Virus record (IMG/VR): IMGVR_UViG_3300034272_003023
Coordinates: 1 to 36,412 of that record
From: a virus
Strand: one strand, 5' to 3'
Length of the DNA: 36,412 nucleotides
The notes beneath the pieces are model-generated. The model did not search any database. It saw nothing but the letters and a program-made list of their open reading frames with translations, and was not told where the DNA came from. The position numbers and the translations under genes are program-made. Below, one piece after another: positions 6,300-28,299 of the stretch (its first letter is position 1; the number at the start of each line of letters is the position of its first letter).

Positions 6300-6683
6300 A
6301 TGAAAGAACTATATCTATTGAGAGGATTACCAGGGAGTGGTAAAAGTTCCTTAGCAAAATCTTTTGACTGTGAACATTTTGAAACCGATATGTTCTTTAT
6401 GGTGGGTGATGAATACAAATTCGATGGTTCTAAATTGAAACTTGCACACAAATGGTGCAAAGATTCGGTTGAAGAATTTATGGATTTAGGATATAACAGA
6501 ATTGTGGTATCAAATACATTTACTCAAGAGTGGGAAATGGATTCATATTATGAACTTGCTCAAAAGTATAGTTACCGAGTTTACTCTTTGATTGTGGAAA
6601 ACCGCCATGGCGGTGTCAACGAACACGGAGTACCGGAAGAAAAGTTAGAACAAATGAAAACCAGATTTGAAATTAAATTATGA
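6300..6683 (+). CDS. AAA_33/N4BP2-type P-loop polynucleotide kinase-like protein
   Basis: This 127-residue P-loop protein has Walker A GLPGSGKSS at residues 9-17, an ETDMFF acidic motif near 28-33, a VVSNTFT strand near 69-75, and the NEHGVPEEKLEQM block typical of N4BP2-like kinases near 107-119. The family includes 5'-polynucleotide kinases. It starts 2 bases after the phosphoesterase and overlaps the next gene by ATGA. With the ligase and phosphoesterase it would complete a 5'-phosphate/3'-OH healing and sealing pathway. The exact substrate (RNA, DNA or a small molecule) cannot be read from the sequence. Confidence 0.85.
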   Translation: MKELYLLRGLPGSGKSSLAKSFDCEHFETDMFFMVGDEYKFDGSKLKLAHKWCKDSVEEFMDLGYNRIVVSNTFTQEWEMDSYYELAQKYSYRVYSLIVENRHGGVNEHGVPEEKLEQMKTRFEIKL

Positions 6684-7687
6684 TTGATTACGCAGATGTT
6701 ATTGTAGACCTCCAAGCTGGAGACACCGGTAAGGGAAAGGTTTGCCACGCTTTGGCTAAAGAACCAAATCGTTACACTCACGTTGTTAGATATAACGGGG
6801 GAGGTAATGCTGGTCACACTGTATACCATAATGGTAAAAAGTTTGTTACCCATTTAATTCCTGTTGGTGTGTTCTATGGAATCAAATCAATCATTGGTTT
6901 GGGTTGCGTTGTCAATATTGATAAGTTGGTTAAAGAGATAATTGAACTCCAGAACAATGGGGTTAATGTTAAAGATTGTCTACTCATCGATAAACGAGCG
7001 CATATTATCACAGATGCCCACGTCGAAGAAGATTCAAAAGACACTGAGATTGGAACAACCAAAACTGGGAATGGTCCTTGTTATCGAGACAAATATTATC
7101 GTAAAGGTCTTAGAGCTGGTGATGTGGAAATTCTTAGACCTCTGATTGTGGATGTCTATGAAGAGTTTCATGGGCAAGAAAAATGTTCAATTCTTTTTGA
7201 AGGTGCTCAGGGTTTTGAACTTGATATTGACTGGGGTGATTATCCCTACGTCACTTCATCTCATTGCACGGTTGGTAGCGCAGTTTTGAATGGTTGTCCT
7301 CCCCAACAAATCAGAGAGGTATATGGTATTGCCAAAGTATATCGCACTTATGTCGGAGCAAAAGAATTTGAAGGTGAAGACCCAATATTTGAGAAAATCC
7401 GTGAAGCGGGTGAAGAGTTTGGTGCAACAACCGGTAGAAAACGTCAAGTTGATTGGTTAAATGTGGATGACCTAATCCAAGCAATCAACATAAACGGAGT
7501 CTCTAGATTGATTTTCAACAAGGCTGACATTCTCAAGTCTGTTGGTAAATACAATCTTTACTTTAAAGGTGAACTGATGGATTTCAAAGAGTATCAAGAT
7601 TTTGAAGATTTTATTGAAAATAAATTAACTCTCTATTGCCCATCAATTAAAGAAACCGTATTTTCGCGAACTCCCTTAGGGATTTAA
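6680..7687 (+). CDS. Adenylosuccinate synthetase, short PurA/PurZ-like type
   Basis: The enzyme joins aspartate to a 6-oxopurine nucleotide using GTP. The 335-residue protein is about 95 shorter than E. coli PurA (432) and close to the archaeal and phage PurZ lengths. It keeps the P-loop GDTGKGK at residues 14-20 with the catalytic Asp15, the NAGHT motif at 43-47 with the catalytic His46, an IGTT(x3)GNGP block, FEGAQG, and the aspartate loop ATTGRKR. Known PurZ enzymes that make the 2-aminoadenine precursor usually replace the catalytic Asp; here it is kept, so ordinary IMP use or a PurZ-related activity are both possible. No DatZ, MazZ or DpoZ partner is seen in the window. Confidence 0.88.
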   Translation: MIDYADVIVDLQAGDTGKGKVCHALAKEPNRYTHVVRYNGGGNAGHTVYHNGKKFVTHLIPVGVFYGIKSIIGLGCVVNIDKLVKEIIELQNNGVNVKDCLLIDKRAHIITDAHVEEDSKDTEIGTTKTGNGPCYRDKYYRKGLRAGDVEILRPLIVDVYEEFHGQEKCSILFEGAQGFELDIDWGDYPYVTSSHCTVGSAVLNGCPPQQIREVYGIAKVYRTYVGAKEFEGEDPIFEKIREAGEEFGATTGRKRQVDWLNVDDLIQAININGVSRLIFNKADILKSVGKYNLYFKGELMDFKEYQDFEDFIENKLTLYCPSIKETVFSRTPLGI

Positions 7688-8118: not shown

Positions 8119-8514
8119 ATGAAAAACCTATTATTACTCTTTTTAATTTTCTCTTTTACCAGTTTGTTTTCCCAGGAAGCAAAGGTAACTTACCTTAGGG
8201 CTCAATCTGCATCTATGGGGGTAAGAGAAGACGAAAATTCTGTTGTGAGTCAGTGGATTGTTGATGGTCGTGAAGTTAATATGTTAGTTGAGCTTCACCA
8301 AACCAAAGTTATTATTTACAGCCAGAAGACTCAGAATTACTACATCATCAAGCAAGTTGAACAAGAAGAAAATTCTTGGAAGTGGCTGTGTAAGGATTCG
8401 GAGGCAAATTCTTGTTATGTAGCCTTGAGAAAAAGTTTTGAATACCCTGGACTTATTACTGTGGCTGTTGAATATAACGATTTGGTTTGGTTTTATATCT
8501 GCACTCACGAATGA
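8119..8514 (+). CDS. Exported hypothetical protein
   Basis: The 131-residue protein begins with a clear signal peptide of about 19 residues ending in LFSQ, with likely cleavage before Gln. The mature part is beta-rich with two Cys near the middle that could form a disulfide (in the CKDSEANSCYVAL stretch). No family is recognised. Its stop overlaps the ATG of the large T9SS-type protein that follows, so both are probably exported together from one mRNA. The role is unknown. Confidence 0.75.
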   Translation: MKNLLLLFLIFSFTSLFSQEAKVTYLRAQSASMGVREDENSVVSQWIVDGREVNMLVELHQTKVIIYSQKTQNYYIIKQVEQEENSWKWLCKDSEANSCYVALRKSFEYPGLITVAVEYNDLVWFYICTHE

Positions 8515-10574
8515 AAAAACTTTTTTCTCTCATTTTTTTGTTGTTCTCCTTTGTGAGTTTTGGTTCTCACTATGCGGGGGGGGACATTCAATACAAGTAT
8601 GTTGGTGATTCCACCGGCATTGCTCATCATTATAAAATAATTTTACGTCTTTACCGTGATGCCAGTGGTATTGGTATGCCAATAACCACTAATGTTACGG
8701 TGAGTTCGTCTTGTTTTTCAAATCAGGTTGTCCCAATGACCCAACAAGCGGGCTCAGGACTTGTAGCTCCCTCTTTATTTGATTGCGTAACTCCTGGTGC
8801 AGCTGGTACAAGAACTTTGGAGATTTATACATATAAGGGGTTTGTTATTTTGCCTGGGGTATGTTCAAACTTCAAGTTTTGGTGGTCGGATTGCTGTAGA
8901 CCAGGTGGTATCACAAATATTTTCGCCTCTAATGGTACCCTCGGTAATGATGGATTTTTCTTTGACGCTGATTTGAATAACACTCTGGGAAATAATTCTT
9001 CACCCATTTTTGTATCTGAGCCAGTAAGAGCTTTCTGCGTTAATAAAACTTTCAACTGGGCGCAAACAAGTGTGGAGTATAATGGTGATAGTATTCACTA
9101 CCAGATGATAAATTGCCGTGAGGGTGTTTATCCCACTCAGACAAACATTCCTTTTGACCCAGGGTTTTCTGCAAACCAACCAGTAACATCAACTTTCTTT
9201 AATATTAACCCAAAGACTGGAACAATTAATTTTCGACCTACCACTCAAGAGATTGACGTGATGAGTGTAAAGATTACTGAATATAGATTTGATTCCATAT
9301 TTACGTTGTGGTATCCAGTTGGTTCGGCAAGTCGCGACATGATGATTTCCATTTCAGCTAACTGCTCCCCATTGGCCACACAAGGGGTTATTTTGGATTA
9401 CAACTTCCCTGGACAATATATTGATAGTGTGACGATGCTACCTGCTGTGGATTACAACTGCGGTGATTCGTTGGTAGAATTAAATTTTGTTGTGAAACTC
9501 GATTGCGAATCAATCGCTCAAGATGGTAGTGACTTCAGATTAACTAACCCCCTTGGTCAGCCAATCCCTATTAAGAGATTGTCCGCAACTTGCGATGTAA
9601 ACAAAGAAACAAAAAAGATTACAGTTCACCTGTTTAAACCATTGCTAGTTAATGGTAGATACTTTTTGTATTCAAAAACCGGAAATGACGGAAACACCTT
9701 GACAAACAAATGTGGATTCCCAATGGATGAGTTTGACACCTTGGTGTTGATTGTTGATGATTGTTATGACCCAGTTTGGAAGTTCGAGAATGTAACGGTG
9801 GTCAATGACAACCATACAGCACTTGAGTGGTCAATAGACACCAGTAGTTTTGATACAACTTATTTTGAGGGATATGGAATATACCGCTGGGATGGAACCC
9901 AATATGCTTTCAGACAAGTAATTACTAATTGGAAAAAACTTTCTTATGATGATTTGACTGCAACTAATGTTGATGGTGAGAGTTATTCATACAAAATAGA
10001 TTTTAGGTTCAACGGATTTGTCTTTGGACCTTCAGATTCCATTCAATCCATCTTGTTGCGCAGCAGTGGTTTATGCGACTCGGTTTGTTTGATTTGGAAT
10101 CAATATGATGGGTGGGTTAGTCCTTGGTATGATGTATTTATCAACTACAATAACCAATGGGTTAAGTGGAATGATGCGCCACTCACTGACACGGTTTATT
10201 GTATGGGTTCTGATACTTTGGATGTTGGTTCTTATAATATCAAGGTGGTAACCCAAAACAACGGATATACAAGCGAGAGTAACTATGTCACTTGTGTTCA
10301 ACCGGAACCTCCAACAATAACAATTCCCAATGTGTTTTCACCTAATGGTGATGGTGTGAATGATTACTTTGTAATTAGAAATCTAAATCTTTATGATTTT
10401 AGACCTTTAGTCATCTACAATCGCTGGGGGCAAAAAGTATATGAAAGTAACCAATACAATAACGATTGGGATGGTACAAACGTACCTGATGGTGTTTACT
10501 ATGGTGTGGTGAGTATTATTATGAACGGGGTTGTTGTTTCTTATCCTTTTCACATTACAATTCTCCACAATTAG
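8511..10574 (+). CDS. Large exported protein with gliding-motility-type (CHU_C, T9SS type B) C-terminus
   Basis: A 687-residue protein starting at 8511 in an ATGA overlap; the longer frame from 8487 would put residues before the signal peptide. Residues 1-21 form a signal peptide. The middle has beta-rich modules, including fibronectin-III-like stretches near 420-590, and about 20 Cys. The last 82 residues (606-687) match the CHU_C domain: PNVFSPNGDGVND, IYNRWGQKVYE, WDGTNVPDGVYYG. In Bacteroidota this domain directs proteins through the type IX secretion system to the surface. In a phage the protein could be a surface adhesin, an exclusion factor or a virion part. A run of eight G at 8576-8583 lies just after the signal peptide. 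Confidence 0.85.
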   Translation: MKKLFSLIFLLFSFVSFGSHYAGGDIQYKYVGDSTGIAHHYKIILRLYRDASGIGMPITTNVTVSSSCFSNQVVPMTQQAGSGLVAPSLFDCVTPGAAGTRTLEIYTYKGFVILPGVCSNFKFWWSDCCRPGGITNIFASNGTLGNDGFFFDADLNNTLGNNSSPIFVSEPVRAFCVNKTFNWAQTSVEYNGDSIHYQMINCREGVYPTQTNIPFDPGFSANQPVTSTFFNINPKTGTINFRPTTQEIDVMSVKITEYRFDSIFTLWYPVGSASRDMMISISANCSPLATQGVILDYNFPGQYIDSVTMLPAVDYNCGDSLVELNFVVKLDCESIAQDGSDFRLTNPLGQPIPIKRLSATCDVNKETKKITVHLFKPLLVNGRYFLYSKTGNDGNTLTNKCGFPMDEFDTLVLIVDDCYDPVWKFENVTVVNDNHTALEWSIDTSSFDTTYFEGYGIYRWDGTQYAFRQVITNWKKLSYDDLTATNVDGESYSYKIDFRFNGFVFGPSDSIQSILLRSSGLCDSVCLIWNQYDGWVSPWYDVFINYNNQWVKWNDAPLTDTVYCMGSDTLDVGSYNIKVVTQNNGYTSESNYVTCVQPEPPTITIPNVFSPNGDGVNDYFVIRNLNLYDFRPLVIYNRWGQKVYESNQYNNDWDGTNVPDGVYYGVVSIIMNGVVVSYPFHITILHN

Positions 10575-13067: not shown

Positions 13068-13492
13068 TGAAGGAGAAAATTTATGTTGGGGTTATTGTGA
13101 AAGTTAACGACGAAGTTTTACTTTGTAAAAGGTCAAGCAAGGCTTCCTTACCAGGAGTCTGGTCGGTTCCAGCAGGAAGTGTTGAAAAAGAGGAAACAAC
13201 AAAAGAAGCTGCAGTAAGAGAGTTTCACGAGGAAACGGATATTATTATTAGTTCAGATGATTTGAAATTTGTTGGTTTAGTTCCCAGGACCTCTAGGGAT
13301 GGTAAGTTTATTAAGGGGTGGATGTATGTGTATCTGCTTGAAAGCAATGCGTATTTGTACCCTGACTTAGAAAATGCTAAAGATGGTGATGAACACTCTG
13401 AATGTGGTTATTATACATTCGAGAACATACAAGAAATGAACACAGGAAAGTTTTTTAAAAAATTATTGGAGGCAATTTTAAATAAGGTTTAA
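13067..13492 (+). CDS. Nudix hydrolase
   Basis: Nudix enzymes cleave nucleoside diphosphates linked to another group. The 141-residue protein has the full Nudix box with Gly37, Glu43 and REFHEE at 51-56; only the Gly near the end of the motif is replaced by Asp58. The start at 13067 follows the ATTATAAAT sequence; a longer frame from 12992 would overlap the divergent gene. The length and the single domain suggest a MutT-type nucleotide clean-up enzyme, or one acting on NTPs, caps or sugar nucleotides. The substrate cannot be read. Confidence 0.88.
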   Translation: MKEKIYVGVIVKVNDEVLLCKRSSKASLPGVWSVPAGSVEKEETTKEAAVREFHEETDIIISSDDLKFVGLVPRTSRDGKFIKGWMYVYLLESNAYLYPDLENAKDGDEHSECGYYTFENIQEMNTGKFFKKLLEAILNKV

Positions 13493-13511
13493 CTTTTTTT
13501 AACTTAACGTA

Positions 13512-13518
13512 TATTTAT
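13512..13518 (+). promoter_or_regulatory. TATTTAT motif upstream of the RNA island
   Basis: TATTTATAA lies about 55 bases before the TTG of the host-type promoter of the RNA island. There is no ORF start close by, so it may give a second, phage-type promoter for the same RNAs. Confidence 0.3.
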
Positions 13519-13568
13519 AATCTCAATCGAGAGGTTGAAACACCCCCACAAAAAGTTCTACAAGCCAG

Positions 13569-13598
13569 TTGACAAACCCTAAATTTGTTTTATCTTTG
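13569..13598 (+). promoter_or_regulatory. Bacteroidota-type promoter of the RNA island
   Basis: TTGACA begins at 13569 and TATCTTTG lies at 13591-13598, 19 bases after TTG. This is the best match to consensus in the window. It is flanked by an inverted repeat, GTTCTACAA (13555-13563) and TTGTAGAAC (13596-13604), which could be an operator. Confidence 0.75.
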
Positions 13599-13601
13599 TA
13601 G

Positions 13602-13683
13602 AACACTCGGAAGAAGGACTTCGGTCCCTTTTCACATCCCACAACGAGTGTTTGAGAAAACATAGTAGTTGTGGGATTTTTTT
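13602..13683 (+). ncRNA. Small RNA with H-type pseudoknot and terminator
   Basis: Three stems can be read by eye. AACACTCG (13602-13609) pairs with CGAGTGTT (13645-13652). Inside that loop is a GGAC-TTCG-GTCC hairpin (13616-13627). ATCCCACAAC (13636-13645) lies inside the first loop but pairs with GTTGTGGGAT (13668-13677) beyond it, which is an H-type pseudoknot, joined by an A-rich linker and followed by seven T. Stem 2 plus the T-run also acts as a terminator, so stem 1 might form first and compete, giving an attenuator ahead of the tRNA. The family is not recognised. Confidence 0.6.
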
Positions 13684-13706
13684 CGGGGTCGTTCTTTAAA
13701 ATATAT

Positions 13707-13778
13707 CGCGGGATAGAGCAGTGGTAGCTTACAAGGCTCATAACCTTGGGGTCGGAGGTTCGAGTCCTCCTCCCGCAA
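13707..13778 (+). tRNA. tRNA-Met(CAT), initiator-like
   Basis: A complete 72-base cloverleaf: acceptor 13707-13713/13771-13777, D arm GAGC/GCTT, anticodon stem CAAGG/CCTTG with loop CTCATAA (anticodon CAT), five-base variable loop, and T arm GGAGG-TTCGAGT-CCTCC. The first acceptor pair is C1-A72 (unpaired) and the D stem has A11-T24, both marks of bacterial initiator tRNA-fMet. The third mark, three G-C pairs in the anticodon stem, is broken: A-T sits where the first would be. CCA is not encoded (ACTA follows). It may supply initiator tRNA to the phage, or may be a diverged elongator. Confidence 0.9.
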
Positions 13779-13780
13779 CT

Positions 13781-13846
13781 AAGTAGACCTTCAAAAGGGC
13801 CCTTCCGTCTCTGCGTGAGCGGCTTGCTGGGCCCGGGTCTACTTTT
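13781..13846 (+). ncRNA. Structured hairpin after the tRNA
   Basis: AAGTAGACC (13781-13789) pairs perfectly with GGTCTACTT (13836-13844). Further in, GGGCCC (13797-13802) pairs with GGGCCC (13829-13834), and the tip can form CTGC-GTGA-GCGG with a GNRA loop. Only a short TTTT follows. It may end the tRNA transcript or be a processed RNA of its own; it is longer and better structured than the other terminators here. Confidence 0.6.
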
Positions 13847-13869
13847 CTAAAAAAAAGTTTAATAACGGA

Positions 13870-13900
13870 TTTGACAAAATCAAAATCTTTATTATACTTT
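13870..13900 (+). promoter_or_regulatory. Bacteroidota-type promoter of the large RNA
   Basis: TTTGACA begins at 13870, and TATACTTT lies at 13893-13900, 19 bases after the TTG. This places the transcript start near 13907. Confidence 0.6.
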
Positions 13901-13906
13901 AACAAC

Positions 13907-14724
13907 AAGTCGGGGAAACTCGGTGAGTTCTTTGAATTACAAAATTGGCGGTTTAGCGTCATTAGATAACCCCAGCGATGGGACTAAAGGGGATGAAAGG
14001 GTTTAGCGACTTGGGATTCTCGCAGGGCTTCGGTCTTGACAACTAAACAAAGTACCTACGACCAAGACCCTAACGGCAAGTGCTGAGGGGATGCGGTCAT
14101 CTCGATTTCGTGGAGAGTCGGGGTTGAGGTGGAGACACCAATAGGAAAAGGTACAGGTGACGGTTTGAGACATCCCGCCGGATGTTGTAAAGCTGAGTAC
14201 CAGTCCAAGGGGCTACCACGGGTTTAAACCCACCGTAGTCCTGCGAGACCGTGAACTGGCGGGTTCACAGAGAGGTGTGAAGCATTTTGTTCTCAAAAGG
14301 AACAGAACTTCTCTCGAAGCACATCTTTCCTTCTTCCACATTTGCTACATATCAAATGAATGATATTCTAAGATACAAGCAAAAGTCTTCGAGCGTTGAT
14401 ATTGAAAGGTGTCTAATCCTTCAGGTCATCGGACCAATGAAGGCATCGGTCGGACTGCAAGTCCCCTGGTGTTGATTGTGAAACTACTCGTGGGACGGCC
14501 ATCCCTTAGTGAGCTCGCAAGGCTTAAGAGATAGAACTAGCAGTTGAGTTGATGTCAACGAAAAGAGTGGTAGACTCAAATTACCGACACTGGCTGGATA
14601 CGTTAGGCAACTAGCGTGGACCGAGTGGGGAAGCAATAATCCCACTAAAGACTGGCCCTCTAAGCTCGTAGTCTCAGAGCATTAGCCAAACCCCCTTCCG
14701 TAAGGTTGGGGGTTTTTTGTTTTT
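13907..14724 (+). ncRNA. Large structured non-coding RNA, about 0.8 kb
   Basis: Roughly 780 bases between a promoter (13870) and a terminator (14688) hold no convincing gene but many perfect hairpins: GGTG-GAGA-CACC (14128-14139), CATCC/GGATG (14171-14184), CTAC..GGGT/ACCC..GTAG (14213-14238), GTGAAC/GTTCAC (14251-14268), GGACT/AGTCC (14452-14464), a stem with GCAA loop (14601-14616) and GTGGG/CCCAC (14625-14645). GGTCTTG (14032-14038) pairs with CAAGACC (14063-14069). GNRA loops recur. Size, structure, a tRNA next door and a phage setting recall the large ornate RNA classes GOLLD and ROOL; that assignment is a guess from context. tmRNA, RNase P and self-splicing intron hallmarks were not found. 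Confidence 0.8.
14688..14724 (+). terminator. Rho-independent terminator of the large RNA
   Basis: AACCCCC pairs with GGGGGTT (14708-14714); the inner CC-GTAA-GG can form a GNRA-capped tip. T-rich sequence follows. Confidence 0.85.
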
Positions 14725-14728
14725 AATA

Positions 14729-14760
14729 TTTGGTAGTTAAGTTTTTTTGTTTTATATTTG
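14729..14760 (+). promoter_or_regulatory. Bacteroidota-type promoter
   Basis: TTTG at 14729-14732 and TATATTTG at 14753-14760 with 20 bases between. The ATG at 14780 follows after a 19-base gap. Confidence 0.65.
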
Positions 14761-14779
14761 TGTAGTAAAACAAACCACC

Positions 14780-15067
14780 ATGAAACACGATACAGTTATC
14801 ATTCAGCACAACAAGATGGGGCAATTACTGACTCAGACATTCGAAAACGCAGGTCAGTTCAAATTGTTCTTAATCAGCATTCAGTCATCCCTGGAGATGA
14901 AACATGATTTTACTCATTTCAACGGAACTGATTTTATCATTCACATTCCCCAGAAACTTTTGACTAAGTGTGTCGTCTACACAAAATGTGTTAATGTTGA
15001 TAAAACCAACCCTTTGTCGAAAGCTTTCAAATCCCGTATGGAGGCTGAAGTAATCAAAGAGTCCTAA
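14780..15067 (+). CDS. Hypothetical protein
   Basis: The ATG at 14780 lies downstream of a TATATTTG promoter, so the longer frame from 14747 is rejected. The 95-residue product looks like a small alpha/beta protein: strands TVIIQHNKMG and DFIIHIPQK, a helix near residues 25-36, and a basic C-terminal helix. No family is recognised. It stands alone between the large RNA and a convergent gene pair. Confidence 0.7.
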   Translation: MKHDTVIIQHNKMGQLLTQTFENAGQFKLFLISIQSSLEMKHDFTHFNGTDFIIHIPQKLLTKCVVYTKCVNVDKTNPLSKAFKSRMEAEVIKES

Positions 15068-15115
15068 CCTCTCTGTTAGGTGGTGGAGCGACTAACAACC
15101 CGTTGGTCCCATAGG

Positions 15116-15144
15116 AAGGTCAGAGTTAGTCTCTGACCTTTTTT
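15116..15144. terminator. Bidirectional terminator
   Basis: GGTCAGAG (15118-15125) pairs with CTCTGACC (15131-15138), with A's before and six T after. It serves the plus-strand gene ending at 15067 and overlaps the end of the minus-strand gene. A second small hairpin, CCTAAC/GTTAGG, lies just upstream at 15063-15080. Confidence 0.8.
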
Positions 15145-15656
15145 CTTTCTAGAAAAACGCGTACACCAAGAACTTCTTGAAGCCGACTTTCAATCATAGT
15201 CTCTAAGCTTTCAAAGAGTTCACTTTCGGAATAAGGGTCATCAGTTAACAACCATTTCCAAACCTCTTCAATAGTTCCTTCGAACGTATCACCGTCTTCA
15301 TTTCCTACCTCTAAATTAGAATCTCCAAAGCCCCAATTTTGAATTATAACGCAGTTTATTTGAGTGTTGACATCAACCTCTGCTTGACTTAAATCAATTT
15401 CAATAAAAAAATTCCCATTTGTGATTGGAAATTCCCATTCTGTGGGTTCAAAAGTAAAATGCTCATCATCACGAGATAGATTTCTTATTGTTTTTTGGAA
15501 AAAAATTTCAGCACCTTCCTCGCCCAACTCGGCAATGATTGATTTGAAAAAATCATTTCTAGACATTCCCAAAAATGTAATTAATGTTGTAACGAATTCA
15601 GAGGGATAACCCCCCTTTTTTAAAAGTATTTTTATAATTTTATCAAAACTAACCAT
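15126..15656 (-). CDS. Hypothetical acidic protein
   Basis: A strongly acidic 176-residue protein; the start may be 15662 or 15656, both overlapping the end of the upstream zinc-finger gene by a few bases. It has a helical N-terminal part (about 1-60), a middle with beta strands and a Glu/Asp-rich C-terminal helix. No domain is recognised. It is the second gene of a two-gene minus-strand unit with the DnaJ-type zinc protein, so the two may act together. Confidence 0.7.
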   Translation of the reverse strand: MVSFDKIIKILLKKGGYPSEFVTTLITFLGMSRNDFFKSIIAELGEEGAEIFFQKTIRNLSRDDEHFTFEPTEWEFPITNGNFFIEIDLSQAEVDVNTQINCVIIQNWGFGDSNLEVGNEDGDTFEGTIEEVWKWLLTDDPYSESELFESLETMIESRLQEVLGVRVFLERKKVRD

Positions 15657-26406: not shown

Positions 26407-28299
26407 ATGAAAAAAATGTTTTTTATTTTGGGTACCTTTTTGGGGATGAATCTTTATTCCCAATCGTGCCCAACTCCAACGGTGAACGGAGCACACATCA
26501 CCATCGATTCAACTTATCAAGTTGGAACAGCATCAGCAGGAAAAACAAATCTGGGACTTTGTTTTTTTAATAACTCCGGAACAGATATCACAGCAGTTCA
26601 ATTTAGATTGTTTTATGATAAACTAGCTTTCGGTTCTGTTGATACAATCACCCTCACAAATACCTCATTCTCCCATTATCTCCAATACCAGGACAATCCA
26701 AGCTTAGGGTTTGTAACAATTACCCTAACCTATACCGGAAGTATAAACAATTTCACCATTCCGAATGGTGGATTGTTTAATGTTGAGTTAAATCACACAA
26801 GTGCACTTGCGACAACATACTTTAACATTGCAAATCTTACTTTCGTTGGAACAAACGTGTTTGGTCATACAGCAACCTCACAAGCTGGAAATGATTTCAG
26901 TTTGAACCTAACAAACTTTGGAGGGCAGTTTAATCAAAGAACTTTCTCCTATAGTGCAAACTTCTTAAATGTTACTGGAACACCAGCAAAACATATTAGT
27001 GTTGCACTTGAGAAAAAACTTAAAGCAGCTTCATCATGGACTTCAGTAAGTGTTGACACAACAAATCTACAAGGGTGGGTATCATTCAACGAAGTTTCAA
27101 TCGACACAACAGCTTGGGATGTGAGACTAGCAGTTCAAGGCGACACCTTAAATTTTGGTAATATCATCTCAGTTGCAGATGCTCAAAGAGTTAACCAATA
27201 TGTTCTTGGACAACAAACACCAACTGGATTTGATTTCCATGCTGCGGACGTTAACGGAGACGGCAACATAACAATCTCTGACGTTTATGCAATCTACGGA
27301 AGAATATCCGGAAGATTCAATTCTTGGATAAACAACGTAAAAGATGTTAAGTTCTTCACCTCTTCAGAATATGCAAGCATCAATGGTTCATCATCTAACC
27401 TAACATCTACCATACCAGGTGTAACGAACTTTACCTTAGAAATTCTTCCCGGAACATCAGACACCGCAACGTACTATGTTATGGGAATGGGCGACGCTAA
27501 TGGTACAGGATTTAAAAGAGCTCGTTTAACACCAATCGAAATTGTAAATCCTAACAACGCAAACCTGCATATTATCGACGTAACAACAGAGTATGATAAT
27601 AATCTTGAGTCAATCGAAGTTAATTTCCCAGAATTGGGTGTTGACGAAGGAGACAAGGTAAGCGTACCAGTTACATTGAAAACAAACAATATTGATTTGG
27701 GTTCTTTGCAATTAGCAATGAAGTTTGACCAAGACCTACTTGAGTTTAATTCCTTGGTAACAGAACTTAAGAGCTCATATTGGCTTACATTCTTAAACAC
27801 AAGTGATAACGAAGTTGAATGGGGGGGTTATGACCCATCTTTTAATCAAAATCTTGTCAACAACGGTGAGATAGTTTTTACTTTGAATTTTACTGCTAAG
27901 GAGGTTCAGGTCAACTGGAACAAGAGTCCATTATATGTTACAAGAAAATTTGCTGGTGATGAAAATGCTACTGATTTGAAAATAACACCCACTGATGGAT
28001 TATTTCAAATTTTTAAAGCTGATGCAAACGATATGTTCGGAAAAAATCAAATGATTTTATTTCCAACTCCGACGCAAGATTTGGTCACCGCACGTTTTAA
28101 AGTTTACGAAAAGGGCGACGTTACTTTAGCTGTCTATGATTTGTTTGGTAAGATGGTCTTTGAAGTATTAGAAGGAACATATCCAATCGGAGTTTACGAG
28201 GAGACTTTTAATCTTGGGGAATTGGCTGCTGGTGAGTATGTAGCAATTTTAAAAACTAAGAACAAAAAGATTGTTGAAAAAACAACAAAAATAAATTAA
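26407..28299 (+). CDS. Exported cohesin/dockerin-like protein with T9SS sorting tail
   Basis: The 630-residue protein has a signal peptide of about 19 residues (cut before Gln), a cohesin-like beta domain at about 30-170, a dockerin-like calcium motif DVNGDGNITISD at 281-292 with surrounding helices, a second cohesin-like domain at about 400-535, and a C-terminal beta domain (about 553-630) with FPTPTQDLVTARF and AAGEYVAIL, typical of the Por/T9SS sorting tail. It should go through the outer membrane by the host T9SS. The cohesin and dockerin pair could build surface or fibre complexes. The segment after the dockerin resembles one in the lectin protein at 31673. Confidence 0.85.
   Translation: MKKMFFILGTFLGMNLYSQSCPTPTVNGAHITIDSTYQVGTASAGKTNLGLCFFNNSGTDITAVQFRLFYDKLAFGSVDTITLTNTSFSHYLQYQDNPSLGFVTITLTYTGSINNFTIPNGGLFNVELNHTSALATTYFNIANLTFVGTNVFGHTATSQAGNDFSLNLTNFGGQFNQRTFSYSANFLNVTGTPAKHISVALEKKLKAASSWTSVSVDTTNLQGWVSFNEVSIDTTAWDVRLAVQGDTLNFGNIISVADAQRVNQYVLGQQTPTGFDFHAADVNGDGNITISDVYAIYGRISGRFNSWINNVKDVKFFTSSEYASINGSSSNLTSTIPGVTNFTLEILPGTSDTATYYVMGMGDANGTGFKRARLTPIEIVNPNNANLHIIDVTTEYDNNLESIEVNFPELGVDEGDKVSVPVTLKTNNIDLGSLQLAMKFDQDLLEFNSLVTELKSSYWLTFLNTSDNEVEWGGYDPSFNQNLVNNGEIVFTLNFTAKEVQVNWNKSPLYVTRKFAGDENATDLKITPTDGLFQIFKADANDMFGKNQMILFPTPTQDLVTARFKVYEKGDVTLAVYDLFGKMVFEVLEGTYPIGVYEETFNLGELAAGEYVAILKTKNKKIVEKTTKIN

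What the first reader, a model, noticed from the sequence alone, without database searches (positions are those of the whole stretch)
13907..14724. Stand-alone 0.8 kb structured RNA in a Bacteroidota phage
Between a promoter (-33 at 13870, -7 at 13893) and a terminator (14688), about 780 bases hold no credible gene but many perfect hairpins, several capped by GNRA loops (GAGA, GCAA), plus a 7-bp pairing between 14032-14038 and 14063-14069. GTTTAGCG also occurs twice (13951, 14001) and CTAAAC at 14043 could pair with either. The size, tRNA neighbour and phage setting fit the giant RNA classes GOLLD and ROOL, but I cannot confirm the class; it may be a new one.
Basis: partly seen in the sequence, partly recalled or inferred. 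Interest (0 to 1): 0.88.

Follow-up and report, generated by a model that had tools for sequence, protein, structure and literature searches.

The report
GOLLD cage RNA in Bacteroidota phage
The 0.8 kb stretch makes a GOLLD RNA, a known giant phage RNA whose relatives build hollow RNA-only cages; what looks new is that this one and its relatives in large Bacteroidota phages start with the same short "keep transcribing" signal that bacteria place in front of their ribosomal RNA genes.

Summary
Rfam RF02032 matches 14270-14680 over all 416 model positions at 292.9 bits, E 5.7e-83; ROOL, OLE, tmRNA, RNase P and introns do not match. Sixty-four viral contigs hold homologues, and 62 of them also match the 5' half (13946-14269) that Rfam does not model. 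Both halves covary strongly: 50 of 93 and 50 of 97 pairs have changes on both sides, 0/500 shuffles. No protein is encoded. The RNA has its own promoter and terminator. The likely new element is in the leader: GTTCTTT(G/A)A between promoter and RNA. GTTCTT is in 35/35 distinct leaders and 12/12 mutually unlike ones (0.75 expected); a matching motif sits in 50/74 Bacteroidota 16S rRNA leaders (1/74 on the opposite strand). It fits the rRNA boxA antitermination signal. Cage formation is inferred from published cryo-EM of another GOLLD. New member of a known kind, possibly with a new expression mechanism.

The parts
13707..13779 (+). tRNA-Met (CAT), separate transcription unit upstream
   Evidence: ARAGORN and Rfam RF00005, 63.1 bits; same place in L005, L009, L010/L012, L017
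13871..13898 (+). promoter of the GOLLD transcript (TTGACA, 16 nt, TATACT)
   Evidence: consensus scan, 11/12; promoter-like sequences visible ahead of the homologues
13909..13924 (+). short leader hairpin with GAAA loop just after the inferred start site
   Evidence: sequence; GTCAGG-GAAA-CCTGAC in L010; similar hairpins in many leaders
13927..13935 (+). boxA-like element GTTCTTTGA
   Evidence: GTTCTT in 35/35 homologous leaders; 12/12 mutually unlike leaders vs 0.75 expected; matching motif in 50/74 Bacteroidota 16S leaders, 1/74 on the opposite strand
13946..14269 (+). GOLLD 5' domain (cap in the published cage), not covered by Rfam
   Evidence: covariation 50/93 pairs, 98.5% of cells paired, 0/500 shuffles
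13951..13956 (+). hairpin loop GUUUAG, 5' strand of conserved pseudoknot/kissing helix
   Evidence: six pairs with 14043-14048, 100% of cells paired, two pairs with double changes; equivalent complementary pair in 6/6 distant GOLLDs
14043..14048 (+). CUAAAC, 3' strand of the same helix
   Evidence: as above
14270..14680 (+). GOLLD 3' domain, Rfam RF02032
   Evidence: 292.9 bits, E 5.7e-83, model 1-416 of 416; covariation 50/97 pairs, 94.5% of cells paired
14330..14377 (+). variable AT-rich linker, disordered in the cage interior in env-38; no tRNA here
   Evidence: unpaired in the Rfam model and poorly conserved; tRNA at this place in L212 and L214
14492..14522 (+). two hairpins with self-complementary loop cores (CGGCCA 14496-14501; CGCAA 14516-14520), candidate self-kissing loops between half-shells
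   Evidence: GGCC becomes TGCA in L021/L033; GC becomes CG in L021/L033/L006, the kind of GC/CG switch described in PMC12286853 for bridge B8
14690..14718 (+). intrinsic terminator
   Evidence: hairpin ACCCCCTTCC-GTAA-GGTTGGGGGT plus T6

Best explanation
The locus is a GOLLD RNA gene of a large tailed phage of a Bacteroidota host. Host RNA polymerase starts at a promoter about 45 nt upstream of the conserved RNA. The nascent leader presents a hairpin and a boxA element that recruits the host Nus factors, so that about 0.8 kb of untranslated RNA is transcribed without Rho termination, as in rRNA operons. The RNA folds into a 5' and a 3' domain and, like GOLLD env-38, self-assembles into a closed RNA-only 14-mer cage. 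Shown here: GOLLD identity, covarying structure of both domains, non-coding status, own promoter and terminator sequences, conserved boxA-like motif. Inferred: Nus-dependent antitermination (about 0.6) and cage assembly (about 0.85, from the published structure of another member). The cage's job is unknown; I think storage or protection of translation machinery (ribosomes, tRNAs) during infection is most likely, at low confidence (about 0.3).
For: Rfam RF02032 full-length match far above the gathering score. 64 viral contigs with homologues, 62 including the 5' half. Every one of 13 examined virus records scores over the GOLLD cut-off, one copy each, in records of 42-372 kb. Covariation in both domains with shuffle and slide controls; most top-ranked covarying column pairs of an untargeted scan fall in the two structures. 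Pseudoknot with six different complementary sequence pairs across distant phages. boxA-like motif: top recurrent heptamer of unlike leaders, 12/12 for its first six bases against 0.75 expected, matching the motif in Bacteroidota 16S leaders and within one base of the first nine positions of the published gamma-proteobacterial boxA consensus GYTCTTTAANA (PMC5725501). Cage, domain layout and self-kissing loops from PMC12286853.
Against: No expression data. Cage assembly of this sequence is not tested. With a position matrix extended around the motif, the window's own site ranks only 7th in the window, and the 3' extension of the motif is not conserved in all leaders. Four of 35 leaders have GTTCTTA, not GTTCTTT. 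Distant GOLLDs in actinophages and others show no clear boxA, so it is not shown to be a trait of the whole family. The leaders come from related phages and are not independent events.
Confidence: 0.85

Rival explanations
1. A GOLLD RNA without rRNA-type antitermination: the GTTCTTTGA motif is a leader element of another kind (RNA stability, start-site region, phage regulator site) or inherited without function.
For: Matrix scores of several leaders are low and the window has better-scoring sites elsewhere; some leaders read GTTCTTA.
Against: The motif persists while its distance from the inferred start (about -1 to 60 nt where it could be computed), its distance to the RNA (21 to 107 nt) and the surrounding sequence all change. 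It matches the Bacteroidota 16S leader motif, which is nearly absent on the opposite strand there.
Confidence: 0.3
2. A new class of giant RNA, or ROOL/OLE/HEARO.
For: The 5' half matches no Rfam family, and a model of its first 109 positions finds the Bacteroidota clade but not actinophage GOLLDs.
Against: The 3' half is a full-length GOLLD; [quoted passage not shown] the first hairpin and its pseudoknot recur in distant GOLLDs.
Confidence: 0.02
3. A degenerate or true protein gene, intron or tmRNA.
For: A 62-aa ORF exists at 14287-14475.
Against: Frameshifts and stops in nearly all homologues; no tmRNA or intron match; substitutions follow base pairing.
Confidence: 0.01

Closest known systems
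GOLLD RNA, Rfam RF02032 (cryo-EM of GOLLD env-38, PMC12286853)
   Same: Full-length 3' domain, variable linker, separate 5' domain, about 0.8 kb, phage setting, tRNA-Met just upstream as described for env-38, self-complementary hairpin loops of the kind that join half-shells.
   Different: Homologue group in Bacteroidota phages; boxA-like leader, which no held paper connects with GOLLD; no tRNA in the linker. The sequence of env-38 could not be compared (supplement not held).
ROOL RNA
   Same: Giant phage RNA near tRNAs that also forms a cage (PMC12286853).
   Different: No Rfam match here; different sequence and structure.
rRNA operon leader (boxA, Nus factor complex)
   Same: Promoter, hairpin, GTTCTTT(G/A)A element, then a long untranslated structured RNA.
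   Different: The RNA behind it is GOLLD; Nus factor binding untested.
GOLLD of cluster M mycobacteriophages (Bongo, Reindeer)
   Same: RF02032 matches 196-216 bits and the same first-loop pseudoknot.
   Different: Embedded in a tRNA/tmRNA array rather than alone behind its own boxA leader; 5' domain not matched by the Bacteroidota model.

Membership tests
GOLLD (RF02032) | Match to the Rfam covariance model above gathering score (150 bits) | tested here: met
   292.9 bits, model 1-416 of 416
GOLLD (RF02032) | Conserved secondary structure of the 3' region supported by covariation | tested here: met
   94.5% of cells paired, 50/97 pairs with double changes, 0/500 shuffles
GOLLD (RF02032) | Structured, lineage-dependent 5' region of some 400 nt | tested here: met
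   98.5% of cells paired, 50/93 pairs with double changes; model of its start does not reach actinophage members
GOLLD (RF02032) | Phage or prophage location, often near tRNA | tested here: met
   virus record, phage genes, tRNA-Met 13707-13779
GOLLD (RF02032) | Homo-14-mer RNA cage | not testable with these tools
   Self-complementary loops retained; assembly itself needs an experiment
GOLLD (RF02032) | Expression during lytic growth | not testable with these tools
   no RNA-seq available
ROOL / OLE / HEARO / tmRNA / RNase P / group I-II introns | Match to the Rfam model | tested here: not met
   no match at gathering score in the window or at E<=5 in 13480-15200
rRNA-type boxA antitermination leader | GTTCTTTGA-type element between promoter and long untranslated RNA | tested here: met
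rRNA-type boxA antitermination leader | Binds NusB/NusE and suppresses Rho termination | not testable with these tools
   experiment needed

The most novel reading that the evidence does not exclude
Large Bacteroidota phages express GOLLD cages from an rRNA-mimicking leader: they borrow the host's Nus/boxA antitermination machinery to make a non-coding cage RNA at rRNA-like levels.
Probability: 0.5. Interest if true: 0.6.

Novelty: new member of a known kind. Interest (0 to 1): 0.45.

Why it matters
GOLLD forms one of the few known RNA-only cages and its function is open. A set of full-length, structure-verified GOLLDs from large Bacteroidota phages, where the 5' cap domain can be aligned, gives material for testing cage contacts. 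The boxA-like leader is a sequence-level hint of how such a long untranslated RNA is expressed, and ties it to rRNA-type transcription. This can be tested directly in Flavobacterium laboratory strains.

Tried and rejected
blastn of the RNA against named phages: no match, nor for relative L035, so no isolated phage of this clade was found. GOLLD pattern in bacterial genome contigs: none. Phylum-, class-, order- and family-wide GOLLD searches of Bacteroidota genomes failed on the server four times; six single genomes had none, so the host range and prophage occurrence stay open. The second GTTTAGCG copy as partner of CTAAAC: rejected by covariation. boxA in distant GOLLDs: looked for, not clear. 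A rigid 20-nt matrix for boxA: poor because the 3' extension shifts. A leader-trailer helix as in rRNA was looked for by eye only and was not consistent. A model of the first 109 positions of the 5' domain as a cross-phylum probe: only L065 at E 0.09.

Full report
WHAT IS THERE. Rfam gives one answer: GOLLD RF02032 at 14270-14680 on the + strand, 292.9 bits, E 5.7e-83, all 416 model positions. A permissive scan of 13480-15200 finds no other family above its cut-off apart from tRNA. The upstream half, 13946-14269, is the GOLLD 5' domain, which Rfam does not model.

RELATIVES. Three DNA patterns drawn from conserved GOLLD motifs fetched 65 viral contigs. nhmmer with the window RNA found 64 with a homologue, 62 of them matching the 5' half as well. 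One contig (L017) carries an identical RNA; distinct full-length sequences number 35, counting the window's, and range from 50 to 88% identity to it, most at 65-88%. Thirteen whole virus records (42-372 kb) each hold one GOLLD over the cut-off. More distant members were found by a looser pattern and by blast: L191/L212 and L190/L214 with a tRNA in the linker, L197/L215, and cluster M mycobacteriophages Bongo, Reindeer and prophiGD54-2.

STRUCTURE. For the 5' domain, an RNAalifold structure plus the loop-CTAAAC helix has 98.5% of cells paired on 24 sequences. Fifty of 93 pairs have a change on both sides against 29 in shuffles (0/500 reach it), and sliding the partners drops pairing to 32-44%. 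For the 3' domain, the Rfam structure transferred to the window has 94.5% paired and 50 of 97 pairs with double changes. An untargeted covariation scan puts the structure's pairs at the top of the list; two of the few others near the top extend a 3'-domain helix (14484-14534, 14485-14533). The 5' structure was derived from the same alignment, so the percentage paired leans in its favour; the 3' structure comes from Rfam and does not share that weakness to the same degree.

GTTTAG (13951-13956, the loop of the first hairpin) pairs with CTAAAC (14043-14048). In relatives both sides change together: GCTTAG/CTAAGC and GCTTGG/CCAAGC. In all six distant GOLLDs examined a hairpin loop at the equivalent place has its complement 70-99 nt downstream, with other sequences (GCATAG/CTATGC, GCATGG/CCATGC, GCCTGA/TCAGGC). 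That search was open-ended and also returned other complementary six-mers; I picked the equivalent one by its position and context. It looks like a real, old interaction; whether it is within one chain or between chains cannot be told. The 7-bp pairing 14032-14038 with 14063-14069 is not kept; 14033-14038 belongs to a local hairpin whose loop varies between UUCG, GAGA and others.

NOT CODING. The 62-aa ORF is broken in nearly all homologues and substitutions follow pairing, not codons.

EXPRESSION SIGNALS. In most distinct leaders a Bacteroidota-type promoter is visible, followed by GTTCTT (35/35), usually GTTCTTTGA or GTTCTTTAA (27/35), 21 to 107 nt before the conserved RNA begins. The leaders are otherwise very variable. 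Among 12 leaders chosen to be unlike each other, GTTCTT is in 12 (0.75 expected), GTTCTTT in 11 (0.36 expected) and GTTCTTT(G/A)A in 9 (0.05 expected); GTTCTTT is the most recurrent heptamer. As an independent check, Bacteroidota 16S rRNA genes were fetched by their conserved start: 50 of 74 leaders carry GTTC(A/T)TT(G/A)A, 1 of 74 on the opposite strand; 19 have exactly GTTCTTTGA and 20 GTTCATTGA. The published boxA consensus for gamma-proteobacteria is GYTCTTTAANA (PMC5725501). I therefore read the element as boxA, the site where NusB and S10 load to make RNA polymerase resistant to Rho, as in rRNA operons. That would make sense for a long untranslated RNA. Binding and antitermination are inferred. 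Against it: an extended matrix ranks the window's site only 7th in the window, distant GOLLDs do not show the motif clearly, and the leaders are related by descent. No paper in the held library combines GOLLD with boxA or antitermination, or with Bacteroidota and phage; most subscription papers are not held, including the 2009 discovery paper.

CAGE. Kretsch et al. (PMC12286853) solved GOLLD env-38 as a 14-mer RNA-only cage with D7 symmetry; its 5' region is the cap, its 3' region the ring, and the linker is disordered inside. env-38 lies downstream of a Met-tRNA, as this one does. In this clade two neighbouring hairpins keep self-complementary loop cores: GGCC (TGCA in L021/L033) at 14497-14500 and GC (CG in L021/L033/L006) at 14517-14518. 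The second change is the type of GC/CG switch that paper reports for a self-kissing bridge. I could not map residues to env-38 because its sequence is in a supplement that is not held.

CONTEXT. The phage is probably of a Bacteroidota host: T9SS sorting domains on two proteins (CHU_C, Por_Secre_tail). It carries RNA ligase, a kinase-like AAA_33 protein, glutamine synthetase, adenylosuccinate synthetase, UDP-galactopyranose mutase and a UmuC-type polymerase. The tRNA-Met upstream appears to be its own unit and is found only in the closest relatives, apart from a more remote one in L065.

VERDICT. Ordinary in class (a GOLLD RNA), well supported, with one possibly new feature: the rRNA-type boxA leader.

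Noticed in passing
window 13600-13685 and 13691-13701: A small conserved RNA with its own promoter (TTGACA 13569, TATCTTTG) upstream of tRNA-Met: arms AACACTCG/CGAGTGTT and ATCCCACAAC/GTTGTGGGAT are interleaved (pseudoknot or alternative folds) and end in T7; a boxA-like GTTCTTTAAAA follows 16 nt before the tRNA. Conserved in L005, L009, L010, L017.
   Followed up: partly
L065:11344-11427 (-): A 372 kb phage record has an SRP-RNA-like sequence (RF00169, 42.3 bits against a cut-off of 40) just upstream of its GOLLD.
   Followed up: partly
L065:2608-2680 (-): A tRNA with anticodon TTA (would read the stop codon TAA) among 13 tRNAs of the same 372 kb phage.
   Followed up: no
window 6680-7687: Adenylosuccinate synthetase; best PHROG is annotated as the 2-amino-adenylosuccinate (PurZ-like) type; the P-loop region reads QAGDTGKGK, so a PurA- or PurZ0-type enzyme is possible.
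   Followed up: no
window 8514-10574 and 26407-28299: Phage-encoded proteins with type IX secretion sorting tails; the second also has cohesin and dockerin domains.
   Followed up: no
leaders of L007, L021, L008, L037, L047 and others: An extra stretch, often able to form a hairpin, between boxA and the GOLLD core that often holds ACCCC(C/T)TTT; absent in the window and its closest relatives.
   Followed up: no
window 15068-15143: Structured stretch with a 13-bp terminator-like hairpin downstream of the small ORF 14780-15067.
   Followed up: no
L092 (CP034120.1): A record titled Glaciecola amylolytica carries a Bacteroidota-type 16S start; the record may be mislabelled.
   Followed up: no
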